Positions 1,802 through 13,637 of a stretch of DNA of 20,579 nt are shown here, one piece after another. A model generated the notes under the pieces. It saw only the letters and a program-made list of their open reading frames with translations. It was not told where the DNA came from and did not search any database. Each line of letters starts with the position of its first letter. Position 1 is the first letter of the stretch. This stretch comes from a virus. Location of the stretch: IMG/VR virus record IMGVR_UViG_3300010211_000013, positions 1 through 20,579 of that record. The stretch is one strand, 5' to 3'. The translations under genes and the position numbers were made by a program.

Positions 1802-2216
1802 ATTTCTTCTCGCCACTACTCGAAGGGCAAGGCGAACCCTCAGGACATCTGCTAGTCGAAGGGCAAGGCGGGCCCTCAGGACAACCGCCAACTGTTAGAC
1901 CGATCAACTCGCTGCCTCTCAATATATCCGTTGTAAATTCAAGATCTCTTTCTTCTAATGTGCATTGTGTATTGCAATGCTCTGTATTATTTGGGTCCAG
2001 ATCACATTTGCTCAGCGTTATTTCACAATCGGTAGGGGGGGAATGCTTTTTTTTGTATGTGTGGTCAATTGTCACTGATAAATCATCAAGCGATATTTCT
2101 TTATTATCAATAATCAAGGGTGAATCATAAAAAAATGGAGTGGGTGGGTCAGCCTGAGCTATGCAATTATGTAAGCTGGCGATCACTAGGTAATAGCTTA
2201 TGTTTCGCATTTTCAT
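1800..2216 (-). CDS. Small exported Cys-rich protein with duplicated C-terminal tail
   Basis: Unrecognised 138-residue protein. The N-terminus (MKMRNISYYLVIASLHNCIA) looks like a signal peptide ending near residue 22. The body is polar with several cysteines (for example CEITLSKCDLDPN), suggesting disulfides outside the cytoplasm. The last 30 residues contain a 12-residue unit twice (CPEGPPCPSTSR, CPEGSPCPSSSG), from a 36-base tandem repeat, ending GEKK with the stop inside a dispersed repeat. The start codon lies two bases past the stop of the upstream 324-residue gene, with GGAAGG just before it, so the two are probably co-transcribed. The body is AT-rich compared with the flanking nuclease gene. 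The ORF is probably real, but the tail may be a late addition by repeats. Confidence 0.6.
   Translation of the reverse strand: MKMRNISYYLVIASLHNCIAQADPPTPFFYDSPLIIDNKEISLDDLSVTIDHTYKKKHSPPTDCEITLSKCDLDPNNTEHCNTQCTLEERDLEFTTDILRGSELIGLTVGGCPEGPPCPSTSRCPEGSPCPSSSGEKK
1817..1888. repeat. 36-bp tandem repeat, two units
   Basis: Units at 1817-1852 and 1853-1888 share CGAAGGGCAAGGCG and CCCTCAGGACA with few substitutions. They lie inside the leftward gene and code its duplicated 12-residue Cys/Pro/Ser tail. The words CCCTTCGA and TCAGGAC resemble a dispersed repeat family I recall from many bacterial genomes, so the tail may come from a mobile repeat. Confidence 0.8.
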
Positions 2217-2218
2217 AG

Positions 2219-3193
2219 TTACCTTCCGGTCCTTACTTTATTAGCGCAAGCGCTGCTGATTGTTTCAATATGCGCTGCCCTACCGGGGAGTTGCTGCAAC
2301 TTTTGCGCTAAAGATTCAAATTCATCTAAAAACTCAGGAGTTTTGTAGCTATCGCGAAATTGCGAAATATATTCTTTTATCTCAGGATAAAAGTATGCCT
2401 CTAAGATATAAGTCCCAAATATCTCATTAACGGTTTCAATAGAAAGAAATCCTCGCTTCCAAAAATAAGCGATCTCCTCAAAAAAATTTAAGTACTTATT
2501 AATCCTTGAAGAGTCAAACTTTCCTCCATAACTCAGATACAGTTTTGCACATTGATCGATTGCTGCGCTAATTTCTGTGTAGTCTCTGTCAGAAAAGAAC
2601 TGCCCGCTCTTTTGTATTGCAAACTCAAGTTCCTTGAAGCCGGCTTGCTTTATAATAAGTGACTTTTGAGATTCGAGTATCGCTGTTTGAGATTTGATTG
2701 CGTCTGTCTGAGCTTCAACGGCTTTCGTTTGCTTGACTAGAAATGCCGCGTTGACTATCAACAGGAATTCGCCGAGCAGAATAAAGAGAATGGTCAGTAA
2801 AGCCATTCTGGCTTGATAAGCTATAAAATATGCCGAGCCTTCACCTATCCTAATACCTATTCTTGAAAGTTGCCTGTCTTTTATGTCTACACCAATGTCT
2901 CTTATTAGTTCTCCCAACTGTTTTAAGTCGACACCAAACAGCTTTCTTACAGCAACACCCTGAAAGATCCACACCACAACTGCTATGAATGAAGTGGCAA
3001 TCATGACATAAAGAATTATTTTTGCGAGCGCAAGCGGTATATCGACTGACTCCGTTAAAAGCGTCACGATAGATGCTGTGAGAATGCTGCCGATGGTTAG
3101 CCCAAAAGAGAATGTTAATATACGACGAGTTTCACTGTTCACCTTATCAGTTCGCAATATTTCGTTTTCAATTTCTGATGTTTTTTTAGTCAT
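2219..3193 (-). CDS. Three-helix membrane protein with coiled coil and cytoplasmic C-terminal domain
   Basis: No family recognised with confidence. Of 324 residues, about 27-47, 54-79 and 130-153 are hydrophobic helices. Residues 154-185 form a heptad-like stretch (KAVEAQTDAIKSQTAILES), probably a short coiled coil. Residues 186-324 are a soluble aromatic-rich helical domain with FFEEIAYFWKRGFLSIETVN, which recalls the DUF4760 type of bacterial membrane-linked protein; that resemblance is from memory. No strong ribosome binding site precedes ATG 3193. It is the first gene of a pair with the exported protein ending at 1800. GC content is visibly lower than in the nuclease or phage genes, suggesting transfer. 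Confidence 0.75.
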   Translation of the reverse strand: MTKKTSEIENEILRTDKVNSETRRILTFSFGLTIGSILTASIVTLLTESVDIPLALAKIILYVMIATSFIAVVVWIFQGVAVRKLFGVDLKQLGELIRDIGVDIKDRQLSRIGIRIGEGSAYFIAYQARMALLTILFILLGEFLLIVNAAFLVKQTKAVEAQTDAIKSQTAILESQKSLIIKQAGFKELEFAIQKSGQFFSDRDYTEISAAIDQCAKLYLSYGGKFDSSRINKYLNFFEEIAYFWKRGFLSIETVNEIFGTYILEAYFYPEIKEYISQFRDSYKTPEFLDEFESLAQKLQQLPGRAAHIETISSACANKVRTGR

Positions 3194-3253
3194 TGTTATT
3201 CTGATTTATTGTTACGTTGCGTGTGATTGTGTGCCTCGCCGGAGCGGCCCTAA

Positions 3254-3331
3254 GCGGCTTGAACGCCTTGTTAAAACGGGCGGTCTATGTTGGAGCGGAT
3301 CGCGTGGAAAAGATGTCCGTCCCCTTTTCTC
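3254..3331 (-). repeat. Dispersed GC-rich repeat, copy A, with attC-like half site
   Basis: A 78-base element about 80% identical by eye to copy B at 4172-4251. On the plus strand it begins GCGGCTTGAACGCCTTGTTA, has TGGAGCGGATCGCGTGGAAA in the middle and ends GTCCCCTTTTCTC. Read leftward, the end is TTTTAACAAGGCGTTCAAGC, which resembles the R''-L'' half of integron attC sites. I could not find a matching R' half before the next start at 3193, so this may be a half site. Confidence 0.7.
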
Positions 3332-3365
3332 GGAGGAGAATAGGTGGGGCGGGATCGGAATGAGT

Positions 3366-3400
3366 AGTTGCTCGTGAAAAATGTTTGCTCCCTATTCTCT
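3366..3400 (-). repeat. Diverged copy D of the dispersed repeat
   Basis: CTCGTGAAAAATGTTTGCTC followed by CCTATTCTC has the same order of words as the distal half of copies A to C (CGTGGAAAATATGTCCGCTC then CCTTTTTTCTC) but with many substitutions. The TAG stop of the gene ending at 3392 lies within it, 60 bases from copy A, so this unit ends in two elements. Confidence 0.5.
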
Positions 3401-3772
3401 TTCTTTCTTTTTCGTTTTGGTACTTTTACCAAGCAAATAACCTGCAATGGTACCTAGTAGACCCATTACAGGAGATATTTGCTGATCACTGTATCCGGCT
3501 ACGACTAAGAAAACAGCCATCACGATTATTAATGATATGCCAAATATTCTTAACAGTTCATCAGGGTCCCTGCCTTTCTGTATCAGATAAGCTATAATGG
3601 CAACGACGGCTATGCCAAATGCTAAGACGGTAGCGCTCATTGTCATGGCATTTGTTGTTGACCACCATGAGTTACTATCTGTAATAACACTCTCTTTATA
3701 ATCCTGTTTGGCATCGTTCAGCTCCTTTGTCAAATTGTTTATATGCTCATCAATTTCCGTTTGTTTGCTCAT
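3392..3772 (-). CDS. Small membrane protein
   Basis: Unrecognised 126-residue protein. Residues 1-30 are charged and helical (MSKQTEIDEHINNLTKELND), followed by membrane segments near 43-64, 75-93 and probably 98-115. The third reads PVMGLLGTIAGYLLGK, a glycine-rich pattern common in small phage and accessory membrane proteins. The C-terminus is a basic tail (KSTKTKKKERE). The start overlaps the stop of the upstream 99-residue gene by four bases (ATGA), and AGAAGG lies seven bases before the ATG, so translation is likely coupled. The stop lies in a diverged dispersed repeat. The gene is AT-rich. Confidence 0.72.
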   Translation of the reverse strand: MSKQTEIDEHINNLTKELNDAKQDYKESVITDSNSWWSTTNAMTMSATVLAFGIAVVAIIAYLIQKGRDPDELLRIFGISLIIVMAVFLVVAGYSDQQISPVMGLLGTIAGYLLGKSTKTKKKERE

Positions 3773-4068
3773 TGCTGCGCCTTCTTTAATGCCGCTATTT
3801 TTTGCTCTAAAGATTGAATTTTCTTTGCTTGCAGTTCAATTAAAAGCCGCTGTTTTTCTAGAGTTTTTTCCATTTCTTTTATTTTTTGATGCTGGGGTTT
3901 TATGTTATTTCTTGAATAAGAATATCGGGGCTTTGACTCCATTGGAGGCCTCGATCTATTTAATGTTTTTAAATCTCTATTTGGTGGATTTTCTACGTTC
4001 TGTGCGTCGGCTACATTTGGTGAAATAGCCAAAAAATATGTCGTGGCGATAATAATAAAATTGATCAT
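3769..4068 (-). CDS. Exported coiled-coil protein
   Basis: Unrecognised 99-residue protein. Residues 1-22 (MINFIIIATTYFLAISPNVA) form a signal peptide with probable cleavage after ADA. A basic, Pro/Arg-rich linker covers about 25-58. Residues 60-99 form a strong coiled coil (KIKEMEKTLEKQRLLIELQA then KKIQSLEQKIAALKKAQQ). AAGGA sits eight bases before ATG 4068. It is the first gene of a two-gene unit with the membrane protein at 3392-3772, which begins with its own charged helix; a helix-mediated partnership across or at the membrane is conceivable but unproven. Confidence 0.72.
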   Translation of the reverse strand: MINFIIIATTYFLAISPNVADAQNVENPPNRDLKTLNRSRPPMESKPRYSYSRNNIKPQHQKIKEMEKTLEKQRLLIELQAKKIQSLEQKIAALKKAQQ

Positions 4069-4091
4069 CTGTACGTTCCTTTTCCGTTGAG

Positions 4092-4194
4092 CGTTAACGA
4101 TAGGATGAGCGCACTTGATAGACTAAAAAATCCTCTCCGTTTTTTGGGCTATCTGGTCCTGCGTCAATGGCGCGGCTTGAACGATTTGTTAAAC
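4092..4194 (-). other. Candidate divergent attC recombination site
   Basis: Read leftward, GTTTAAC at 4194-4188 fits the R'' consensus RYYYAAC and is followed by AAATCGTTCAAGCCGCGCC, typical of the left half of integron attC sites. About 100 bases on, GTTAACG (4098-4092) stands where R' (GTTRRRY) is expected, matching its first five positions. The length of 103 bases is within the normal attC range, and the next start codon (4068) is only 24 bases beyond, as in gene cassettes. The L' arm is poor. Confidence 0.4.
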
Positions 4195-4251
4195 GGGGTG
4201 GCCGACGTTGGAGCGGATCGCGTGGAAAATATGTCCGCTCCCTTTTTTCTC
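4172..4251 (-). repeat. Dispersed GC-rich repeat, copy B
   Basis: An 80-base copy of the repeat at 3254-3331. Shared blocks are GCGGCTTGAACG, TTGTTAAA, GTTGGAGCGGATCGCGTGGA and AATATGTCCG. It starts one base beyond the TAG (4253-4255) of the gene to its right and overlaps the left part of the attC-like site. Its GC content contrasts with the AT-rich genes on both sides. Confidence 0.75.
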
Positions 4252-4252
4252 T

Positions 4253-4900
4253 CTATCTATCCACTAATGAGGCTATCGTTTCAGTTGCCCCTATTATTGA
4301 TACGACTAGCATGATTGTAATTTGAACCGGAATATTGGATATTTCAAAAAATGAAAAAAAATCTTTCCAAAGGAATGTGCTTTCGATTCCGTTTCCTATT
4401 GAAATGGCATAAATTGCGGATGAGATAGTGAAGCCGGAAACTATTGGTCCAATAGCGGAGTAGATTGCGCCAATCACGCAGAAAAATAGGGTTGTCGCTA
4501 TGGCTGGGAATATGAGAAAAGGAATGCGGTCTAGAGTTGAAATTTCCTTGGCGAGCGATATAGAGCAAGAGAAACCATTAAACAATAACACTAGCATGAT
4601 AGAACCTACGGCCACTTTCGCGATTGGTCCGTCTTCTTTCATCAATTTGGCGAGAAATAATATACCTATTAATGGTGCTGCAAAGATTAGCGCGATCATA
4701 ATTAATCCCCCGAGAAATTCAAAAATTGGCGGAGGGTTACTGTAGTGGGTGAAAGCATATCCAACCCCGATCATTGAGAAAATGCTAGCGGTGATCGTGG
4801 TTGTGATAATGAATTTATCACGATCGAAGAGAAGGAAGCGCGATAGTGTTCCGGCAACTAAAGGAAATCCAATGGCGAGGTATAAAATAGTATCGATCAT
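4253..4900 (-). CDS. Polytopic membrane protein
   Basis: Unrecognised protein of 215 residues from ATG 4900, or 228 from ATG 4939. I prefer 4900 because the protein then begins with a membrane helix (MIDTILYLAIGFPLVAGTLS); neither start has a clear Shine-Dalgarno sequence. About six or seven hydrophobic helices cover nearly the whole chain, with short loops such as LLFDRDKF and LMKEDGPIAK, and no soluble domain. No catalytic motif or transporter signature stands out. It stands alone between the attC-like repeat at its 3' end and a GC-rich segment at 5040-5095 upstream. AT-rich codon use suggests it was acquired. Confidence 0.7.
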   Translation of the reverse strand: MIDTILYLAIGFPLVAGTLSRFLLFDRDKFIITTTITASIFSMIGVGYAFTHYSNPPPIFEFLGGLIMIALIFAAPLIGILFLAKLMKEDGPIAKVAVGSIMLVLLFNGFSCSISLAKEISTLDRIPFLIFPAIATTLFFCVIGAIYSAIGPIVSGFTISSAIYAISIGNGIESTFLWKDFFSFFEISNIPVQITIMLVVSIIGATETIASLVDR

Positions 4901-5094
4901 GATTTTGTCGCGTTGTATTGTGTGATAAATTACTGCCATTGGCGTTTTATAGCCATAGCTTTACCCATATCTTCTGGCGCTTTTCGTGTACGGCGAGATA
5001 AGTGCTTGATTGCGTGTCTTGGAGCCATGAGTTGCCAGCTTCGTGGGACGAAAACCGGGTGCCGTAAGTGTCTGAGCGGGCACGCGGGCTCGAC

Positions 5095-5208
5095 TTAATC
5101 TAGTTTTTTATTTTTCATGCTAAGTTTTTTTTCATTAATATATGTTGCCCCGTGCCCTCCAAAAAAGGCGCCGATTGCAGAGTTCAAAAATTGTGATAGT
5201 ATTTCCAT
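5095..5208 (-). CDS. Putative 37-residue membrane peptide
   Basis: ATG 5208 opens a short frame, MEILSQFLNSAIGAFFGGHG then ATYINEKKLSMKNKKLD, ending at TAA 5095-5097. A hydrophobic, Gly/Ala-rich helix followed by a Lys-rich tail looks like a small membrane protein or the surviving N-terminus of a longer one. An in-frame TAA lies 15 bases upstream of the start. It begins 12 bases past the stop of the 51-residue gene, so the two may form a small operon. There is only a weak purine-rich stretch (AAAAGAA) before the start. Confidence 0.35.
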   Translation of the reverse strand: MEILSQFLNSAIGAFFGGHGATYINEKKLSMKNKKLD

Positions 5209-5220
5209 AGATGCATTCTT

Positions 5221-5376
5221 TTAGCTATGATTAAAGTTGAATTTGTCTGGCAGATCTGGATCAGCTTCAGCGCTATGGGCAGCAATTCCGATTCGCGCCA
5301 ATGCATCCTTCCCCATCCCTCGTACACGCTCCTCGCGAAGCATATCCGCCAAACTGTGTATCCGCCTAGCGGCCAT
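5221..5376 (-). CDS. Putative 51-residue charged protein
   Basis: ATG 5376 is preceded by AAAGGA seven bases upstream, a good ribosome binding site. The product reads MAARRIHSLADMLREERVRG, then MGKDALARIGIAAHSAEADP, and ends DLPDKFNFNHS. It looks like a helical cytoplasmic protein with an unstructured acidic end. Codon use is GC-rich, like the host and unlike the island genes to its left. The family is not recognised; it could also be the end of a longer gene, since the frame stays open about 30 bases upstream of the ATG to a TGA. Confidence 0.45.
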   Translation of the reverse strand: MAARRIHSLADMLREERVRGMGKDALARIGIAAHSAEADPDLPDKFNFNHS

Positions 5377-5465
5377 TGACAGTTCCTTTGATCCAGGTCT
5401 AGTCTCGAATCGTCACGGCAAAATCCGTGGCCGGGTTTGGCGACCCGAACATCAGTAGGCGCGTA

Positions 5466-5493
5466 AGCGCCTCATCCGTCTGGCGCTTTTTTT
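5466..5493 (+). terminator. Attenuator-like hairpin in the C4 leader
   Basis: AGCGCC (5466-5471) pairs with GGCGCT (5482-5487), followed by seven T residues, the form of a Rho-independent terminator. The left arm can instead pair with GGCGC at 5458-5462 (loop GTAA), which would break the terminator. Early termination inside the leader fits what is known of P4 immunity transcription. Confidence 0.55.
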
Positions 5494-5580
5494 GTGCCCG
5501 GACGGTCTCCTATGGCGTCCTGCGTGGGGAGACCTTCGGGTCTGCCGGTGTCCTACTGAGCCGGTTCGCCAACCCTGCGT
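5472..5580 (+). ncRNA. c4: Putative C4 antisense RNA
   Basis: This segment holds both antisense motifs (5551-5559 and 5565-5572) and an internal hairpin, GGTCTCC at 5504-5510 with GGAGACC at 5528-5534. In P1 and P4 the C4 RNA is processed from the leader transcript and pairs with target sites in the same leader to silence the downstream antirepressor or lytic genes. The boundaries here are my estimate; ends cannot be read from sequence. Confidence 0.6.
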
Positions 5581-5645
5581 GGGATCGCCGCCCTGTTTGG
5601 CGACAGGGCAGCGGTCAAAGCAACCGCATCAGTAGGAGTCATCTC

Positions 5646-6242
5646 ATGGCCAACACTTTCCAGACCGTGACGGTCGAAAGCTTGCCTGTCATTACCCACG
5701 AAGATGTTCGCGTCATCACAACCGAACTGCTGGCGAATCTCTACGGCACCGAGCCGAAGAATCTGCGTATGAACTTTGCCAACAACGAAGATCGATTCGT
5801 TTCTGGCAAACATTTCTTCAAGCTCGAAGGCGAACCACTACGAGAATTCAAGAGCTTGCACAAAGCCAATGATGTTGGCTTTGTGGAAATCTCCCCCCGA
5901 GCCAAGCACCTAACCCTCTGGACCGAACGCGGCGCCGCCCGCCACGCCAAGATGCTCGACACCGACGAGGCCTGGGAGGTCTTCGAGAAGCTGGAGGACT
6001 GCTACTTCGGCGTCGGCAAGGACCACCCCACCACCGCCTTCCCCACCTATCAGCGCGCCCTGGTCACCATTGAGCACGGCAAGATCACCAGCATCCTGGA
6101 CCTCGAAGGCTGCAGCCTGGTCGAGACCAAGGGCTTGTGGACGGTCCGCGAGAACCTGCGCATCGTGATCGACCAGCTGAGCTGGCTGCAGGGCGAGGCG
6201 TCCGGCGAGGCGTTGGAGCGGCGGCTGAAGCCGTTGGGCTGA
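5646..6242 (+). CDS. ORF6N-domain phage regulatory protein (putative antirepressor)
   Basis: This 198-residue protein starts at ATG 5646, eight bases after AGGAG. Residues about 12-105 match the ORF6N domain pattern: LPVITHEDVRVITTELLANL, then YGTEPKNLRMNFANNEDRFV and SGKHFFKLEGEPL. That domain is found in phage DNA-binding and antirepressor proteins. The continuation (LTLWTERGAARHAKMLDTDE then AWEVFEKLEDCYF) is typical of its C-terminal side. The frame extends upstream to GTG 5427 without a stop, but the strong ribosome binding site and the RNA structure argue for 5646. A C4-type RNA could mask this site, which fits an antirepressor role. The gene is convergent with the nuclease-like gene at 6318. 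Confidence 0.8.
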   Translation: MANTFQTVTVESLPVITHEDVRVITTELLANLYGTEPKNLRMNFANNEDRFVSGKHFFKLEGEPLREFKSLHKANDVGFVEISPRAKHLTLWTERGAARHAKMLDTDEAWEVFEKLEDCYFGVGKDHPTTAFPTYQRALVTIEHGKITSILDLEGCSLVETKGLWTVRENLRIVIDQLSWLQGEASGEALERRLKPLG

Positions 6243-8296: not shown

Positions 8297-8428
8297 ATGT
8301 CTGACCAAGCGAACTTGCACCGCGCAGTCGACCGTTGCGCGGATTCCATCGAATCCTTTTCCGTGAGTCATATTCATGAGCACCATCATCTCCATCCACG
8401 GTTACGACATCCATTACATCGACGATGA
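8297..8428 (+). CDS. Putative 43-residue leader peptide
   Basis: ATG 8297 follows GGAGAG (8284-8289) at a good spacing. The frame reads MSDQANLHRAVDRCADSIES, then FSVSHIHEHHHLHPRLRHPL and HRR. It overlaps the start of the regulator gene at 8376 by 53 bases in another frame. The regulator's own start has only a weak site (GTGAG), so translation of this frame may help load ribosomes there. The His/Arg-rich end is probably not a folded protein. Confidence 0.35.
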   Translation: MSDQANLHRAVDRCADSIESFSVSHIHEHHHLHPRLRHPLHRR

Positions 8429-9167
8429 GCCGACCATCCAGGATCTGGATCTGGCCAAGCGGCTTGGGTATGAGCGTCCGCGAGCGATTCGCGATCTCAT
8501 TAAACGGCTTCTGAGAGAGAAAAAGCTCAACGAAATCAATATTTGCCGTACCGTGGAGCAAACCCCGGGAGAATCTGGTAGGCCGTCGGAGGTGTTTTAC
8601 CTCGATGAATTTGCCAGTTTGAAAGTGACGGTGAAATCCGAGGCCGCCAAGGCTGACGAGATCACCGACGAAATCATCCAGGTCTTCATCGACGCGCGAA
8701 AGGGCGTGAAGCCGGCCGATTCGTCCAGCCAGTACGTCTACGACGTCGAGTTCCAGGTGGCCGAGGTCGCCGCGCGCATGCTGCGGATGTCCGACACCAG
8801 CAAAATCCGCATGCTCGCGTCCATCTGCGAAATCAAGGGCGTTCCCAGCACGTTCCTCCCGGCCTATGTCGACGAGCCGCAGGTCCGGGCGATGACCGCG
8901 CTGCTCAAGGAGCATGGCAGCTCGCTGTCCGCGAAGGCGGCCAATCTGGCCCTGCTGGATATGGGGTTCCTTGAGGAGTTGGAGCGCAAGGGCTCGAAAG
9001 GCGACATCAAGCGGTTCAAGAGCCTGACCGAGAAGGGAGTGCGCTACGGTCGCAACGAGACCAGTCCGCAGAACCCGCGCGAGACGCAGCCGCTGTACTT
9101 TGTGGATCGGTTCCCGGAGTTGTTGGGATTGATCGAGACGCATCTGGGTAAGAACAAGGCCGCCTGA
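8376..9167 (+). CDS. Phage antirepressor/regulator-like protein
   Basis: This 263-residue cytoplasmic protein has the look of a phage regulatory protein. Residues about 18-60 (PTIQDLDLAKRLGYERPRAI then RDLIKRLLREKKL) resemble an N-terminal DNA-binding segment of Rha or antirepressor proteins. Residues about 70-108 (GRPSEVFYLDEFASLKVTVK then SEAAKADEITDEIIQVFIDA) match the pattern shared by P22-type antirepressors and Rha, where a 'YLNE..A' motif precedes 'SxxxKA..V...V...F'. The C-terminal half is alpha-helical with no motif I recognise. It is the second such regulator in the window after the ORF6N gene. It is convergent with the leftward phage genes ending at 9246. Confidence 0.6.
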   Translation: MSTIISIHGYDIHYIDDEPTIQDLDLAKRLGYERPRAIRDLIKRLLREKKLNEINICRTVEQTPGESGRPSEVFYLDEFASLKVTVKSEAAKADEITDEIIQVFIDARKGVKPADSSSQYVYDVEFQVAEVAARMLRMSDTSKIRMLASICEIKGVPSTFLPAYVDEPQVRAMTALLKEHGSSLSAKAANLALLDMGFLEELERKGSKGDIKRFKSLTEKGVRYGRNETSPQNPRETQPLYFVDRFPELLGLIETHLGKNKAA

Positions 9168-10076: not shown

Positions 10077-10523
10077 CTATCGGCTGATCCGGTTCCAGGC
10101 CTCGGCGGCGATGCGGGCGAATTGTCGGGCGATCGCCGTGCGAGCGCGCACGAGGTAGGGATCGCCCTTGTAGCCCGGATGGTGGACGACCTTCGCGAAG
10201 ACGAACCCGTTTCCCGCCGCCCAACGCAACGCCTTGCGGTTCCTGGGGCGGATCTCGTGCGGTTTGGTGCCCCAGTGGACGAACGGTGCGTGCGGGGCGA
10301 CGCTGAGGTCGTGGTAGATCTCGTAGCGGTCCTCGCCGATCCGCCGGATCTTGAGCGAGCGCACCAGAGCACCCGAGCGGCTGTGACGCTCGGCCCCAGC
10401 CAGGGCTTGCTCGTAGGCATCCTGAGCGGTCTCCTGCGTGACCTCGCGACGCAGGTCTGGGACCAGCTGCAGCATCCGCCGGCGCAGCGCGGCGATCGAC
10501 GGGCGAACCTCGATCTGGAGCAT
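10077..10523 (-). CDS. HK97 gp10-like head-tail joining protein
   Basis: A 148-residue protein resembling the HK97 gp10 family, which joins head and tail in siphophages. The diagnostic stretch is YEIYHDLSVAPHAPFVHWGT at about residues 68-87, followed by KPHEIRPRNRKALRWAAGNG, FVFAKVVHHPGYKGDPYL and a terminal helix (ARTAIARQFARIAAEAW). The length is normal for the family. Its ATG (10523) shares one base with the portal stop (TGATG), so it is translationally coupled to the portal gene. In most siphophages this gene lies after the capsid gene; here it follows portal directly and is on the strand opposite to capsid. Confidence 0.8.
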   Translation of the reverse strand: MLQIEVRPSIAALRRRMLQLVPDLRREVTQETAQDAYEQALAGAERHSRSGALVRSLKIRRIGEDRYEIYHDLSVAPHAPFVHWGTKPHEIRPRNRKALRWAAGNGFVFAKVVHHPGYKGDPYLVRARTAIARQFARIAAEAWNRISR

Positions 10524-11830
10524 CAGGTCGCTCCGGGCCCGCGCTCGTGCGCGCCTTCGTCCTCGGCCTCGAGCAGGGCGGCCAGCTCGTCTTCCTCGGC
10601 GGCCGCGAAGCTCAGGGCGACGATCTGCTTGCGCTTGGCGCGCAGCGCCGCGTCGCTGAATCCCGTGGTCTGCATCGCCGCCAGCTCGTCAAGCTCGACG
10701 CCGACGTCGGTCAGGGCATAGTCGTCGTCCCAGCTGGTGGTGACGCGGTTACGTATCCCGAGCCAGCGGCAGACCAGATCCAGCGTGCGCCGCTCCAGAT
10801 CCTCCATCTTGCCCGCCCATTTACTCAGTGAGCTGTTGAGCTGCTGGAAGCGGATCTTGAGCGCAATGCCGCTTTCCGTGCGGTCCGGGGCCTCGATTTG
10901 GTGACCGACGCGGCGAATGCGCTCGTCGAGCTTGTCGATGCGCTCAAGGTAGATGCGCGCCGGACCCTCGCTCGGGGCGATGAAGGCCGGCGTATCCCCG
11001 GAGTGGACCAGCATGTTATGGGTGCCGATCTGGGCCGCCACCGTCGCCGCCTCGAACTGGCTGGTCTGCTCGGGCGGGATTTGGTAGGTCAGCAGGCTGA
11101 AGGTCTGCGAACGCAGGATCTCGTCGAGCTCCGAGTGCAGATTGAACAGCCGGCGCGAGAGGTCGGCGATCTGGGAGAACTCGCCCTCGGACGGAAACTC
11201 GCCCTCGGCGAAGGCGAGGACCGGACAGACGCCCAGGGCGTGCGTGCCGGACTCGATCTCCCGCTCCCCCTCGTGTACCCACCAGCGCGTCGCGTCCCAG
11301 CCGCGCAGCTGGGATCCGTCCTGGATCTCGATCGAGGCCAGGGCCCCGTTGTCCGCCAGCGCGTACTCCACGACCCGCTCCGGATCGATGCGCGTCAGAT
11401 AGGGAACGCTCCGGGTCTCGAGCTGCTCGGCCCGGGTCCCCCCGGTCGCGCGCGGCATGTCGACCAGCAGCAGCATGACCCCGCGCGCCTTGGCCTCGAT
11501 GGTGAAGGTCGACCAGAACACGTCGAGGCTGTCCCCCTGCCAGTTGCAGTCGTCAAGGAACAGGGTGAGCAGATCGTTGCCGCCGGTGTCGCGCTGCGGG
11601 CGGCGTTGCGCCAGATACCCGGAAAAGCGCTCGCAGGCCGACTTGAGATCGTTGACGTAGTAGGCGACCTGATTGCGGCGCGCGAACTTCTCGTCGCCCT
11701 CGCGGGGGTACTGGATCAGGTACGTCGGACCGGTCAGGGACGTGCCGTCGCTGGTGGTCGCGGGACGGAATCCGCCGGTCCTGTGCAGGGCCTCGGCGAT
11801 GAAGCGGAAACGGGCGGTATCGAGGTGCAT
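10523..11830 (-). CDS. Phage portal protein
   Basis: Likely portal, the dodecameric ring at the capsid vertex through which DNA passes. From ATG 11830 it has 435 residues; a TTG at 11860 would add ten. I prefer 11830 because the family-like sequence begins there (MHLDTARFRFIAEALHRTGG). Portal-like features are ARRNQVAYYVNDLKSACERF then SGYLAQRRP near residues 50-80, the wing-like stretch GVMLLLVDMP, and a helical segment (LDERIRRVGHQIEAPDRTES then GIALKIRFQQLNSSLSKWAG) typical of the stem/clip region of DUF4055- or SPP1-type portals. The C-terminus is acidic. It leads a leftward operon and diverges from the scaffold gene. Confidence 0.75.
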   Translation of the reverse strand: MHLDTARFRFIAEALHRTGGFRPATTSDGTSLTGPTYLIQYPREGDEKFARRNQVAYYVNDLKSACERFSGYLAQRRPQRDTGGNDLLTLFLDDCNWQGDSLDVFWSTFTIEAKARGVMLLLVDMPRATGGTRAEQLETRSVPYLTRIDPERVVEYALADNGALASIEIQDGSQLRGWDATRWWVHEGEREIESGTHALGVCPVLAFAEGEFPSEGEFSQIADLSRRLFNLHSELDEILRSQTFSLLTYQIPPEQTSQFEAATVAAQIGTHNMLVHSGDTPAFIAPSEGPARIYLERIDKLDERIRRVGHQIEAPDRTESGIALKIRFQQLNSSLSKWAGKMEDLERRTLDLVCRWLGIRNRVTTSWDDDYALTDVGVELDELAAMQTTGFSDAALRAKRKQIVALSFAAAEEDELAALLEAEDEGAHERGPGAT

Positions 11831-11949
11831 GCCGAGTCCATAGGCAGGAGGTTTTCTCAAACCTATTTCAATCCTGCGTCATTTAGCGGCACATCGTGTC
11901 GCGCCCAGTTGCCAGACTCGCGCCCAAGCACACCGCCGCGAGGGCACCC
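11831..11949. promoter_or_regulatory. Divergent intergenic region of the structural module
   Basis: These 119 bases separate the leftward portal operon from the rightward scaffold-capsid operon and must hold two promoters or lie within longer transcripts. A TTGAAA at 11873-11868 on the minus strand is a possible -35 box for the portal side, but no convincing -10 follows. The stretch around 11850-11890 is locally AT-rich. Confidence 0.3.
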
Positions 11950-12669
11950 ATGGATATCGAGGAACTGAAAGAGACGCTGGGCGAGGAGCGCTACACCGCT
12001 CTCGCCGCCCATGTGGCCGACCTGGAAGGGCAGCGCGACGCCGCCCGCAACGAGTCGATCAAGCACCGCCAGGGGCTGAAGACCAAGGTCGCCGAGCTCG
12101 AGAAGACCAACACCGAACTCACGCGCAGCCGCGACGAGATGCTCGAGCGCCTGGGCGTCGATTCGCTGGAGGCGCTCGCCGACCTGGATCCAAAGGGGCA
12201 GGCCGAAGCCGCCAAGCAGTTCGAGGTCAAGCTCAAACGCCTGGAGAAAGAGCTGTCCGACAAGACCGCCGCCTATGGCGAACTCGACGCGCGCTATCGC
12301 GGCTCGCTCAAGAGCTCGGCCATGCAGCAGGCGCTGGCCGGGCACGACTGGGTGGACCGCGAACTGGTCACGGCCTTCGTTTCCCAGCGCCTGGACTGGG
12401 ACGAGGACCAGGTCGTATTCAAGACCAACGACGGCGGCCTGGTGCCGCTCGATGACGGCATCAAGACGCTGACCAAGGAGCGTCCGCATCTTTTGAAGAG
12501 CGCCGGGGCGGGAGGTTCCGGGTATCGCGGCGGCCAGTCGGCGAACGGCGAGGCCAAAACCAAGAACCCCTGGGCCAAAGAGTCGCGCAACATCACTGAG
12601 CAGATTGCCCTGATGCGCGATGACCCGGCCCGCGCCGAGCAGCTTAAGGCCGCTGCCGGCGTCAGCTGA
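11950..12669 (+). CDS. Phage scaffold protein
   Basis: A 239-residue protein placed directly before the major capsid gene, as scaffolds are. ATG 11950 has GAGGG about six bases upstream; a GTG at 11896 is less likely. The N-terminal half is strongly helical and coiled-coil (HVADLEGQRDAARNESIKHR then VAELEKTNTELTRSRDEMLE and KRLEKELSDKTAAYGELDAR). A mid-region segment (VDRELVTAFVSQRLDWDEDQ) precedes a Gly-rich, flexible linker and a charged tail (ITEQIALMRDDPARAEQLKA), which in scaffolds contacts the capsid protein. Composition (Glu, Lys, Ala, few aromatics) fits a proteolysed or released assembly chaperone. The next gene starts 14 bases on. Confidence 0.8.
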   Translation: MDIEELKETLGEERYTALAAHVADLEGQRDAARNESIKHRQGLKTKVAELEKTNTELTRSRDEMLERLGVDSLEALADLDPKGQAEAAKQFEVKLKRLEKELSDKTAAYGELDARYRGSLKSSAMQQALAGHDWVDRELVTAFVSQRLDWDEDQVVFKTNDGGLVPLDDGIKTLTKERPHLLKSAGAGGSGYRGGQSANGEAKTKNPWAKESRNITEQIALMRDDPARAEQLKAAAGVS

Positions 12670-12683
12670 ACAGGTAACTCATC

Positions 12684-13637
12684 ATGGCCGTTGTCAAGAT
12701 TTCCGACATTCTCACGCCCGACAACTGGAATGAATACGGCGCGGCGCGTACCGCCGAACTCTCGGCGTTATGGACCTCCGGGGTCGTCTCCAGCATGGAT
12801 GATATTCAACTGCCGCAAGGTGGCGGCACCATCAACATGCCGTACTTCGGTGATCTGACCGGCGACGCCGAGACGCTCTCCGATGCGGCGGCGCTCACGC
12901 CGGGCAACATCGCGGCGCTCAAGCAGATCGCGGTCATCATCGGGCGCGGCCGGGCCTGGGGCGCCAACGACCTGGCCGCCGTCTTCGCCGGGGCCGACCC
13001 GGCGGCGGCGATCATCGACCGCATCGCAGGTTATTGGGCGCGTCAGATGCAGGCCGAGCTGATCGCCCTGCTGGCGGGCGTCTTCGGCGCAGCGTCGATG
13101 GCCGGGCTGGTGTCCGACGTCTCGGGCGGCGCGGACGCGGCGGCTCGCACCTTCACCGCCGAGAACTTCATCGACGCCACGCAACGGCTCGGAGACGCCA
13201 AGTCCTCGGTCTCGGCCATCGCTATGCACTCGGCCACGGAGGCATTCCTCGCCAAGGCCGACCTGATCGAGTACGAGACGGTAGCCGGCAAGTCCGACCG
13301 CGTGCCCTTCTACATGGGCAAGCGGGTGATCGTGGACGATGCGATGCCGGTGAGCTCGGGCACCTACACCTCGTACATCTTCGGCGCCGGTGCCGTCGGT
13401 TATGCCGATGGAACGATCGGGGAGGAAGACCTCGAGAACGACCGCGACATCCTGGCCGGCGAGAACGTCTTCACCATGCGCCGGCGTTTCATCTTGCACC
13501 CGCGCGGCCTGCGCTGGCAGGGCACGCCGGCGGGCGACTTCCCGACCCGCGCCGAGCTGGCGACCGGGGGCAACTGGCTGCGCGTCTTCGAGACGAAGCA
13601 GATCCCCATCGTGCAGTTCGTTCACAAGCTGGCCTAA
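12684..13637 (+). CDS. Major capsid protein
   Basis: A 317-residue HK97-fold-type coat protein by pattern and position. The N-terminal arm reads MAVVKISDILTPDNWNEYGA, followed by QLPQGGGTINMPYFGDLTGD, typical of gp13-like or SPP1-group capsid proteins. A helical spine lies around AAIIDRIAGYWARQMQAELI, and SVSAIAMHSATEAFLAKADL resembles the A-domain strand and helix. The C-terminal part (FTMRRRFILHPRGLRWQG and a final VFETKQIPIVQFVHKLA) is characteristic of the group. AGGTAA precedes ATG 12684. No protease gene is next to it, so maturation cleavage is not indicated. Confidence 0.85.
   Translation: MAVVKISDILTPDNWNEYGAARTAELSALWTSGVVSSMDDIQLPQGGGTINMPYFGDLTGDAETLSDAAALTPGNIAALKQIAVIIGRGRAWGANDLAAVFAGADPAAAIIDRIAGYWARQMQAELIALLAGVFGAASMAGLVSDVSGGADAAARTFTAENFIDATQRLGDAKSSVSAIAMHSATEAFLAKADLIEYETVAGKSDRVPFYMGKRVIVDDAMPVSSGTYTSYIFGAGAVGYADGTIGEEDLENDRDILAGENVFTMRRRFILHPRGLRWQGTPAGDFPTRAELATGGNWLRVFETKQIPIVQFVHKLA

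What the first reader, a model, noticed from the sequence alone, without database searches (positions are those of the whole stretch)
5427..5645. C4-type antisense RNA circuit ahead of an ORF6N gene
Two copies each of TTTGGCGA and TCAGTAGG flank one set of complements (TCCTACTGA, TTCGCCAA). The second copy includes the Shine-Dalgarno sequence of the ORF6N gene, so antisense pairing would block its translation. This is the P1/P4 C4 immunity logic, here in an apparently non-enteric genome and attached to a different downstream gene.
Basis: partly seen in the sequence, partly recalled or inferred. Interest (0 to 1): 0.75.

Follow-up and report, generated by a model that had tools for sequence, protein, structure and literature searches.

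The report
C4 antisense RNA controlling ORF6N antirepressor
A phage sequence carries a genuine member of the known C4 family of antisense RNAs, which most likely keeps the phage dormant by blocking translation of an antirepressor gene; the same arrangement is already known from the Salmonella prophage Gifsy-1 and from Shiga-toxin phages, so it is real but ordinary.

Summary
Rfam finds C4 (RF01695, 66 bits, 5508-5595), its a1/b1 target model (RF03163, 58.7 bits, 5399-5451) and isrK (RF01394, 60.6 bits, 5412-5493), all above curated cut-offs. Sites a1, b1, b', a', a2 and b2 are all present, and b2 covers the Shine-Dalgarno of the ORF6N gene (5646-6242). Spacing closely follows the annotated P1 locus.

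The claimed novelty does not hold. C4 directly before an ORF6N antirepressor is standard: Gifsy-1 isrK-orf45-anrP, Lahn2/TL-2011a, Hafnia and Actinobacillus phages, and 64 C4 matches in 80 viral loci fetched by ORF6N protein. C4 outside enterics is also known.

Small additions: the leader reading frame whose translation the Gifsy-1 model needs is closed early in 23 of 32 ORF6N leaders, this one included, so antisense pairing looks like the conserved mechanism. The exact address was found in no other viral contig. New member of a known kind.

The parts
5399..5451 (+). c4-a1b1 leader element (two small hairpins carrying target site a1)
   Evidence: RF03163, 58.7 bits, gathering 46.7, E 9e-13
5412..5493 (+). 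isrK-like leader RNA, ending in a terminator-like hairpin and T run
   Evidence: RF01394, 60.6 bits, gathering 50; 3' hairpin AAGCGCC/GGCGCTT 5465-5488, -11.1 kcal/mol, z -2.35, with a 10-nt loop; the consensus terminator scan, which allows loops of 3-8, reported none
5437..5443 (+). target site a1 (TTGGCGA)
   Evidence: 7-nt complement of a'; duplex -14.4 kcal/mol
5452..5459 (+). target site b1 (TCAGTAGG)
   Evidence: 8-nt complement of b'; duplex -13.4 kcal/mol
5514..5592 (+). C4 antisense RNA, inferred processed form of 79 nt (model match 5508-5595)
   Evidence: RF01695, 66 bits, gathering 45; folds to the C4 structure at -42.2 kcal/mol, z -2.52; ends inferred from alignment with the annotated 77-nt P1 C4
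5551..5559 (+). b' loop (TCCTACTGA)
   Evidence: loop of the second C4 hairpin; complement of b1 and b2
5566..5572 (+). a' single-stranded segment (TCGCCAA)
   Evidence: unpaired in the predicted fold; complement of a1 and a2
5597..5603 (+). target site a2 (TTGGCGA)
   Evidence: 7-nt complement of a'; duplex -10.8 kcal/mol
5629..5637 (+). target site b2 (TCAGTAGGA), covers AGGA of the Shine-Dalgarno
   Evidence: 9-nt complement of b'; duplex -16.1 kcal/mol; SD AGGAG at 5634-5638 read from sequence
5646..6242 (+). ORF6N-domain antirepressor gene, 198 aa
   Evidence: PF10543 E 9.5e-20, residues 15-103; PHROG anti-repressor families, best 1.3e-54

Best explanation
This is a C4-type immunity module of a temperate phage. 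One transcript from upstream of 5399 carries an isrK-like leader (sites a1, b1 and a weak terminator), then C4 RNA, then sites a2 and b2, then the antirepressor gene. C4 is probably cut out of the transcript at GG 5514, as P1 C4 is by RNase P. It pairs through b' and a' with b2 and a2 and so covers the Shine-Dalgarno of the ORF6N gene, keeping the antirepressor off in the lysogen and in any incoming phage with the same a/b address. Pairing with a1/b1 would act on the leader, either promoting termination as with P4 seqA or acting as a competing site. Shown here: family membership, structure, all six pairing segments, and covariation across homologues. Inferred: transcription, RNase P processing, repression in vivo, and the antirepressor activity of this protein (taken from Gifsy-1 AnrP and from family names).
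For: Three Rfam matches over curated cut-offs. C4 fold of the window RNA. 80 distinct a'/b' address types: b' longest own match averages 7.3 nt upstream and 8.0 nt downstream against 4.7 with other loci; a' 7.0 against 5.5-5.7; 0/2000 permutations reach it in any of the four tests; no other locus matches window b' as well as its own sites. Geometry as in annotated P1: a1-b1 start distance 15 (P1 14), a2-b2 32 (P1 29), b2 end to start codon 9 nt (P1 10). Same order ahead of ORF6N in Gifsy-1, Lahn2, TL-2011a, PhiR5_2, Hafnia Meifeng and Actinobacillus pPE4. Anti-repressor PHROGs. AnrP expression induces Gifsy-1 (PMC4825925).
Against: No expression or processing data for this phage. No convincing promoter: one 9/12 match at 5202-5231, 0.3 expected. 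No integrase or CI-type repressor was identified in the proteins examined, so the lysogenic circuit it would feed is not seen. In Gifsy-1 the reported net effect of IsrK is activation through orf45 (PMC4825925), and co-expressing the C4-like RNA STnc1160 did not relieve IsrK toxicity. Predicted fold of the protein gave no PDB match.
Confidence: 0.9

Rival explanations
1. Gifsy-1 style control: the short isrK-like RNA acts in trans to open a leader reading frame running through C4, whose translation is coupled to the antirepressor.
For: The homologous Gifsy-1 locus was shown to behave this way (PMC4825925); the window has an isrK match.
Against: The frame from the conserved ATGG of C4 closes after 15 codons in the window, 86 nt before the gene, and closes more than 20 nt early in 23 of 32 distinct ORF6N leaders with that ATG; the 45-codon overlap was seen in 4 Gifsy-1-like leaders. 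The pairing segments, by contrast, covary.
Confidence: 0.06
2. P4-CI style: C4 acts mainly by causing premature transcription termination at the leader through a1/b1 (seqA), not by blocking translation.
For: isrK is described as a homologue of P4 seqA (PMC4825925; PMC10111431); the window leader has a terminator-like hairpin with a T run.
Against: b2 covers the Shine-Dalgarno here and matches its own b' in 68 of 80 types, which termination at the leader would not need. Both actions could coexist.
Confidence: 0.15
3. Decayed remnant without function.
For: No promoter or repressor gene recognised in the window; contig is a 20.6 kb fragment.
Against: All six pairing segments, the fold, the Shine-Dalgarno and the open reading frame are intact.
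Confidence: 0.05
4. Chance repeats.
For: The a sites alone are short and the 7-mer is frequent in the window, 12 against 4.1 expected.
Against: Rfam E-values 4e-11 to 9e-13; 0 of 20,000 shuffles give all four matches; covariation.
Confidence: 0.005

Closest known systems
Gifsy-1 isrK-orf45(STnc1160)-anrP locus, Salmonella (NC_010392; PMC4825925)
   Same: isrK, c4-a1b1 and C4 Rfam matches in the same order directly before an ORF6N gene; proteins 49% identical.
   Different: Other a/b address; Gifsy-1 has a 45-codon leader frame overlapping anrP by 4 nt, closed early in the window. Gifsy-1 ORF6N protein has a different C-terminal part.
Phage P1 immI: C4 RNA with icd-ant1
   Same: a1, b1, C4, a2, b2 in the same order and nearly the same spacing; b2 just before a start codon.
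   Different: In P1 b2 precedes icd, to which ant1 is linked; in the window b2 precedes the ORF6N gene itself. Addresses differ (P1 TTGACAG / GTTAGTGA).
Stx-phage ant loci (Lahn2, TL-2011a)
   Same: isrK-C4-ORF6N order; ORF6N proteins about 50% identical.
   Different: Addresses differ; these sit in a nin-Q region, the window gene does not.
P4 CI RNA with seqA/seqC
   Same: C4 clan RNA; seqA detected by isrK (PMC10111431).
   Different: P4 CI works by transcription termination; whether that occurs here is untested.
Acinetobacter baumannii Group 1 C4-like sRNAs (PMC5320573)
   Same: C4-fold RNAs outside enterics, expressed and apparently processed at GGW.
   Different: Described as chromosomal sRNAs with diverged a' segments, no antirepressor target described in the passages read.

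Membership tests
C4 antisense RNA (RF01695) | Match to the covariance model above the gathering score | tested here: met
   66 bits against 45
C4 antisense RNA (RF01695) | Closing stem with two hairpins, b' in a loop and a' unpaired | tested here: met
   fold of 5508-5595, -42.2 kcal/mol
C4 antisense RNA (RF01695) | Upstream a1/b1 targets | tested here: met
   RF03163 58.7 bits; 7 and 8 nt complements
C4 antisense RNA (RF01695) | Downstream a2/b2 with b2 at a ribosome-binding site | tested here: met
   7 and 9 nt complements, AGGA of the Shine-Dalgarno covered
C4 antisense RNA (RF01695) | Pairing segments covary among homologues | tested here: met
   80 address types, 0/2000 permutations. Caveat: loci L017-L136 were fetched with a pattern that fixes part of a1, so a1 is biased there; b1, b2 and a2 are not
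C4 antisense RNA (RF01695) | RNase P cuts the precursor at the 5' GG | not testable with these tools
   conserved TATGG present, GG at 5514-5515
C4 antisense RNA (RF01695) | Represses its target in trans | not testable with these tools
   needs a reporter assay
isrK (RF01394) | Match above gathering score with terminator | tested here: met
   60.6 bits against 50; terminator-like 3' hairpin and T run
Gifsy-1 type isrK-orf45-anrP | Leader frame through C4 overlapping the antirepressor start | tested here: not met
   frame closes after 15 codons, 86 nt before the gene
ORF6N antirepressor | ORF6N domain | tested here: met
   PF10543 71.1 bits against 27.8; PHROG anti-repressor
ORF6N antirepressor | Inactivates a phage repressor | not testable with these tools
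   inferred from Gifsy-1 AnrP (PMC4825925)

The most novel reading that the evidence does not exclude
The short isrK-like leader RNA of such loci is a trans-acting decoy: its a1/b1 sites titrate C4, so that a transcription burst that ends at the leader terminator lifts repression of the antirepressor. This would recast the Gifsy-1 IsrK activation as relief from C4 and explain why a1/b1 covary with C4 as well as a2/b2 do, even where the leader reading frame is lost, as in this window.
Probability: 0.2. Interest if true: 0.45.

Novelty: new member of a known kind. Interest (0 to 1): 0.22.

Why it matters
It adds a C4 address type (a TTGGCGA / b TCAGTAGGA) in a probably non-enteric phage and confirms by covariation that both pairing segments are under selection. 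Comparison with Gifsy-1 shows that the leader reading frame is dispensable across the family, which makes the mechanism of IsrK, a published Salmonella regulator, open to a direct test against C4 antisense repression. Beyond that the locus is ordinary.

Tried and rejected
Close protein search in genome contigs found no relative; Acinetobacter BRO/ORF6N loci and Lactobacillus PLE2 have no C4, so ORF6N genes also occur without it. The two nearest phages by capsid (L254 75%, L255 68%) lack C4, so the module is a swappable cassette. Exact-address search in viral contigs: none. Possible second C4 target before the regulator-like gene at 8376: no exact b site elsewhere in the window, rejected. Structure prediction of the ORF6N protein: N-terminal domain confident (pLDDT about 80-90), C-terminal third not; no PDB match at E<=0.001 and no sequence match. 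Host could not be identified: the record is an IMG/VR fragment. Chance and decay were considered and set aside.

Full report
What is there. The window is a 20,579-base IMG/VR virus record. cmscan of the whole window gives, all on the plus strand and above curated cut-offs, c4-a1b1 at 5399-5451, isrK at 5412-5493 and C4 at 5508-5595; the only other listed match is below its cut-off. The ORF6N gene is 5646-6242 (198 aa; PF10543; anti-repressor PHROGs). The a' match is 7 nt exact, the b' match 8 nt (b1) and 9 nt (b2), and b2 covers most of the Shine-Dalgarno.

Is it more than chance. Shuffling the flanks with dinucleotides kept gives probabilities of 0.002 for each b match, 0.06 for a1 and 0.0065 for a2, and never all four in 20,000 trials. 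The stronger test is comparative. Loci were collected by ORF6N protein, and by a leader DNA pattern. A covariance model of C4 built from eight loci found 195 matches, including the window. These hold 80 distinct a'/b' combinations. For each, the longest exact complement of b' and a' was sought upstream and downstream of its own C4 and of all others. Own sites: b' 7.31 nt upstream and 7.99 nt downstream; a' 7.01 and 6.99. Other loci: 4.67, 4.74, 5.70, 5.46. None of 2000 permutations reached any of the observed means. The C4 alignment was fitted to C4 alone, so it cannot create these matches. Caveats: the types are not phylogenetically independent, and the pattern-fetched loci have part of a1 fixed by the query. 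Window b' finds an equally long match in no other locus.

What it works like. P1 is annotated with a1, b1, C4, a2, b2 and then icd. My test recovers the P1 pairings, and the spacing is close: a1-b1 start distance 14 in P1 and 15 here, a2-b2 29 and 32, b2 end to start codon 10 and 9. P1 C4 of 77 nt aligns with 5514-5592 here. The natural reading is translational repression of the antirepressor by C4 in the lysogen, with superinfection immunity against phages of the same address. Expression, processing and repression are inferred, not shown.

The downstream gene is not new. Gifsy-1 anrP, Lahn2 ant, TL-2011a, PhiR5_2, Hafnia Meifeng and Actinobacillus pPE4 all have C4, with isrK and in most a1b1, directly before an ORF6N gene. 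In the 80 viral loci fetched by ORF6N protein there were 64 C4 matches. In the pattern-fetched loci C4 also precedes Bro-N, Phage_pRha and small unnamed genes. This agrees with the published note that C4 and isrK detect immunity RNAs in the Bro gene zone of satellites (PMC10111431). C4 beyond enterics has been listed since 2010 (PMC2864571) and studied in Acinetobacter (PMC5320573). My scan of GTDB genomes finds the leader in Pseudomonas, Halomonas, Salinicola, Marinobacter, Vibrio and others.

Bearing on the Gifsy-1 mechanism. Hershko-Shalev et al. (PMC4825925) reported that IsrK activates anrP through translation of orf45, the frame that runs through what Rfam calls C4, and mentioned the P4 seqA/CI parallel. 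I asked whether that frame is conserved. In 32 distinct ORF6N leaders with the ATGG it closes more than 20 nt before the gene in 23, including the window, and overlaps as in Gifsy-1 in 4. The antisense pairing is therefore the more conserved property. An untested possibility is that IsrK relieves C4 repression as a decoy.

Context. The nearest phages by capsid protein (L254, L255) have no C4, so the module is a cassette. The nearest leader DNA is from Pseudomonas phages and from Pseudomonas and Burkholderia plasmids; the host was not identified. The exact address occurs in no other viral contig.

Verdict. New member of a known kind, interest 0.22.

Noticed in passing
L060 2351-4994 (minus strand): Four tandem C4::Phage_pRha units about 850 bp apart, with near-identical 3' coding halves but four different a/b addresses, each matching its own sites: an apparent array of separate C4 switches in one phage.
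   Followed up: partly
genome of L233 (G002, Pseudomonas chlororaphis 14D6), loci L264, L266, L268-L271: Nine C4 matches in one genome (eight over the cut-off); the six loci read from this genome all have different b' segments, and most precede small unnamed proteins rather than Bro-type antirepressors.
   Followed up: partly
window 2000-5000: Low-GC islet (39-42% against 54-68% elsewhere in the window beyond it) with four minus-strand genes, one with DUF4760, the others unassigned.
   Followed up: no
window 10080-13634: Neck and portal genes are on the minus strand, divergent from scaffold and major head protein on plus; blastn suggests the same orientation in relative L254.
   Followed up: partly
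window 8376-9164: Regulator-like protein (C-terminal match to PHROG 129 transcriptional regulator) with no C4 site of its own.
   Followed up: no
L158 1853-2944: Two C4 genes with the same b' but different a' in one contig, suggesting a and b addresses recombine or diverge independently.
   Followed up: no
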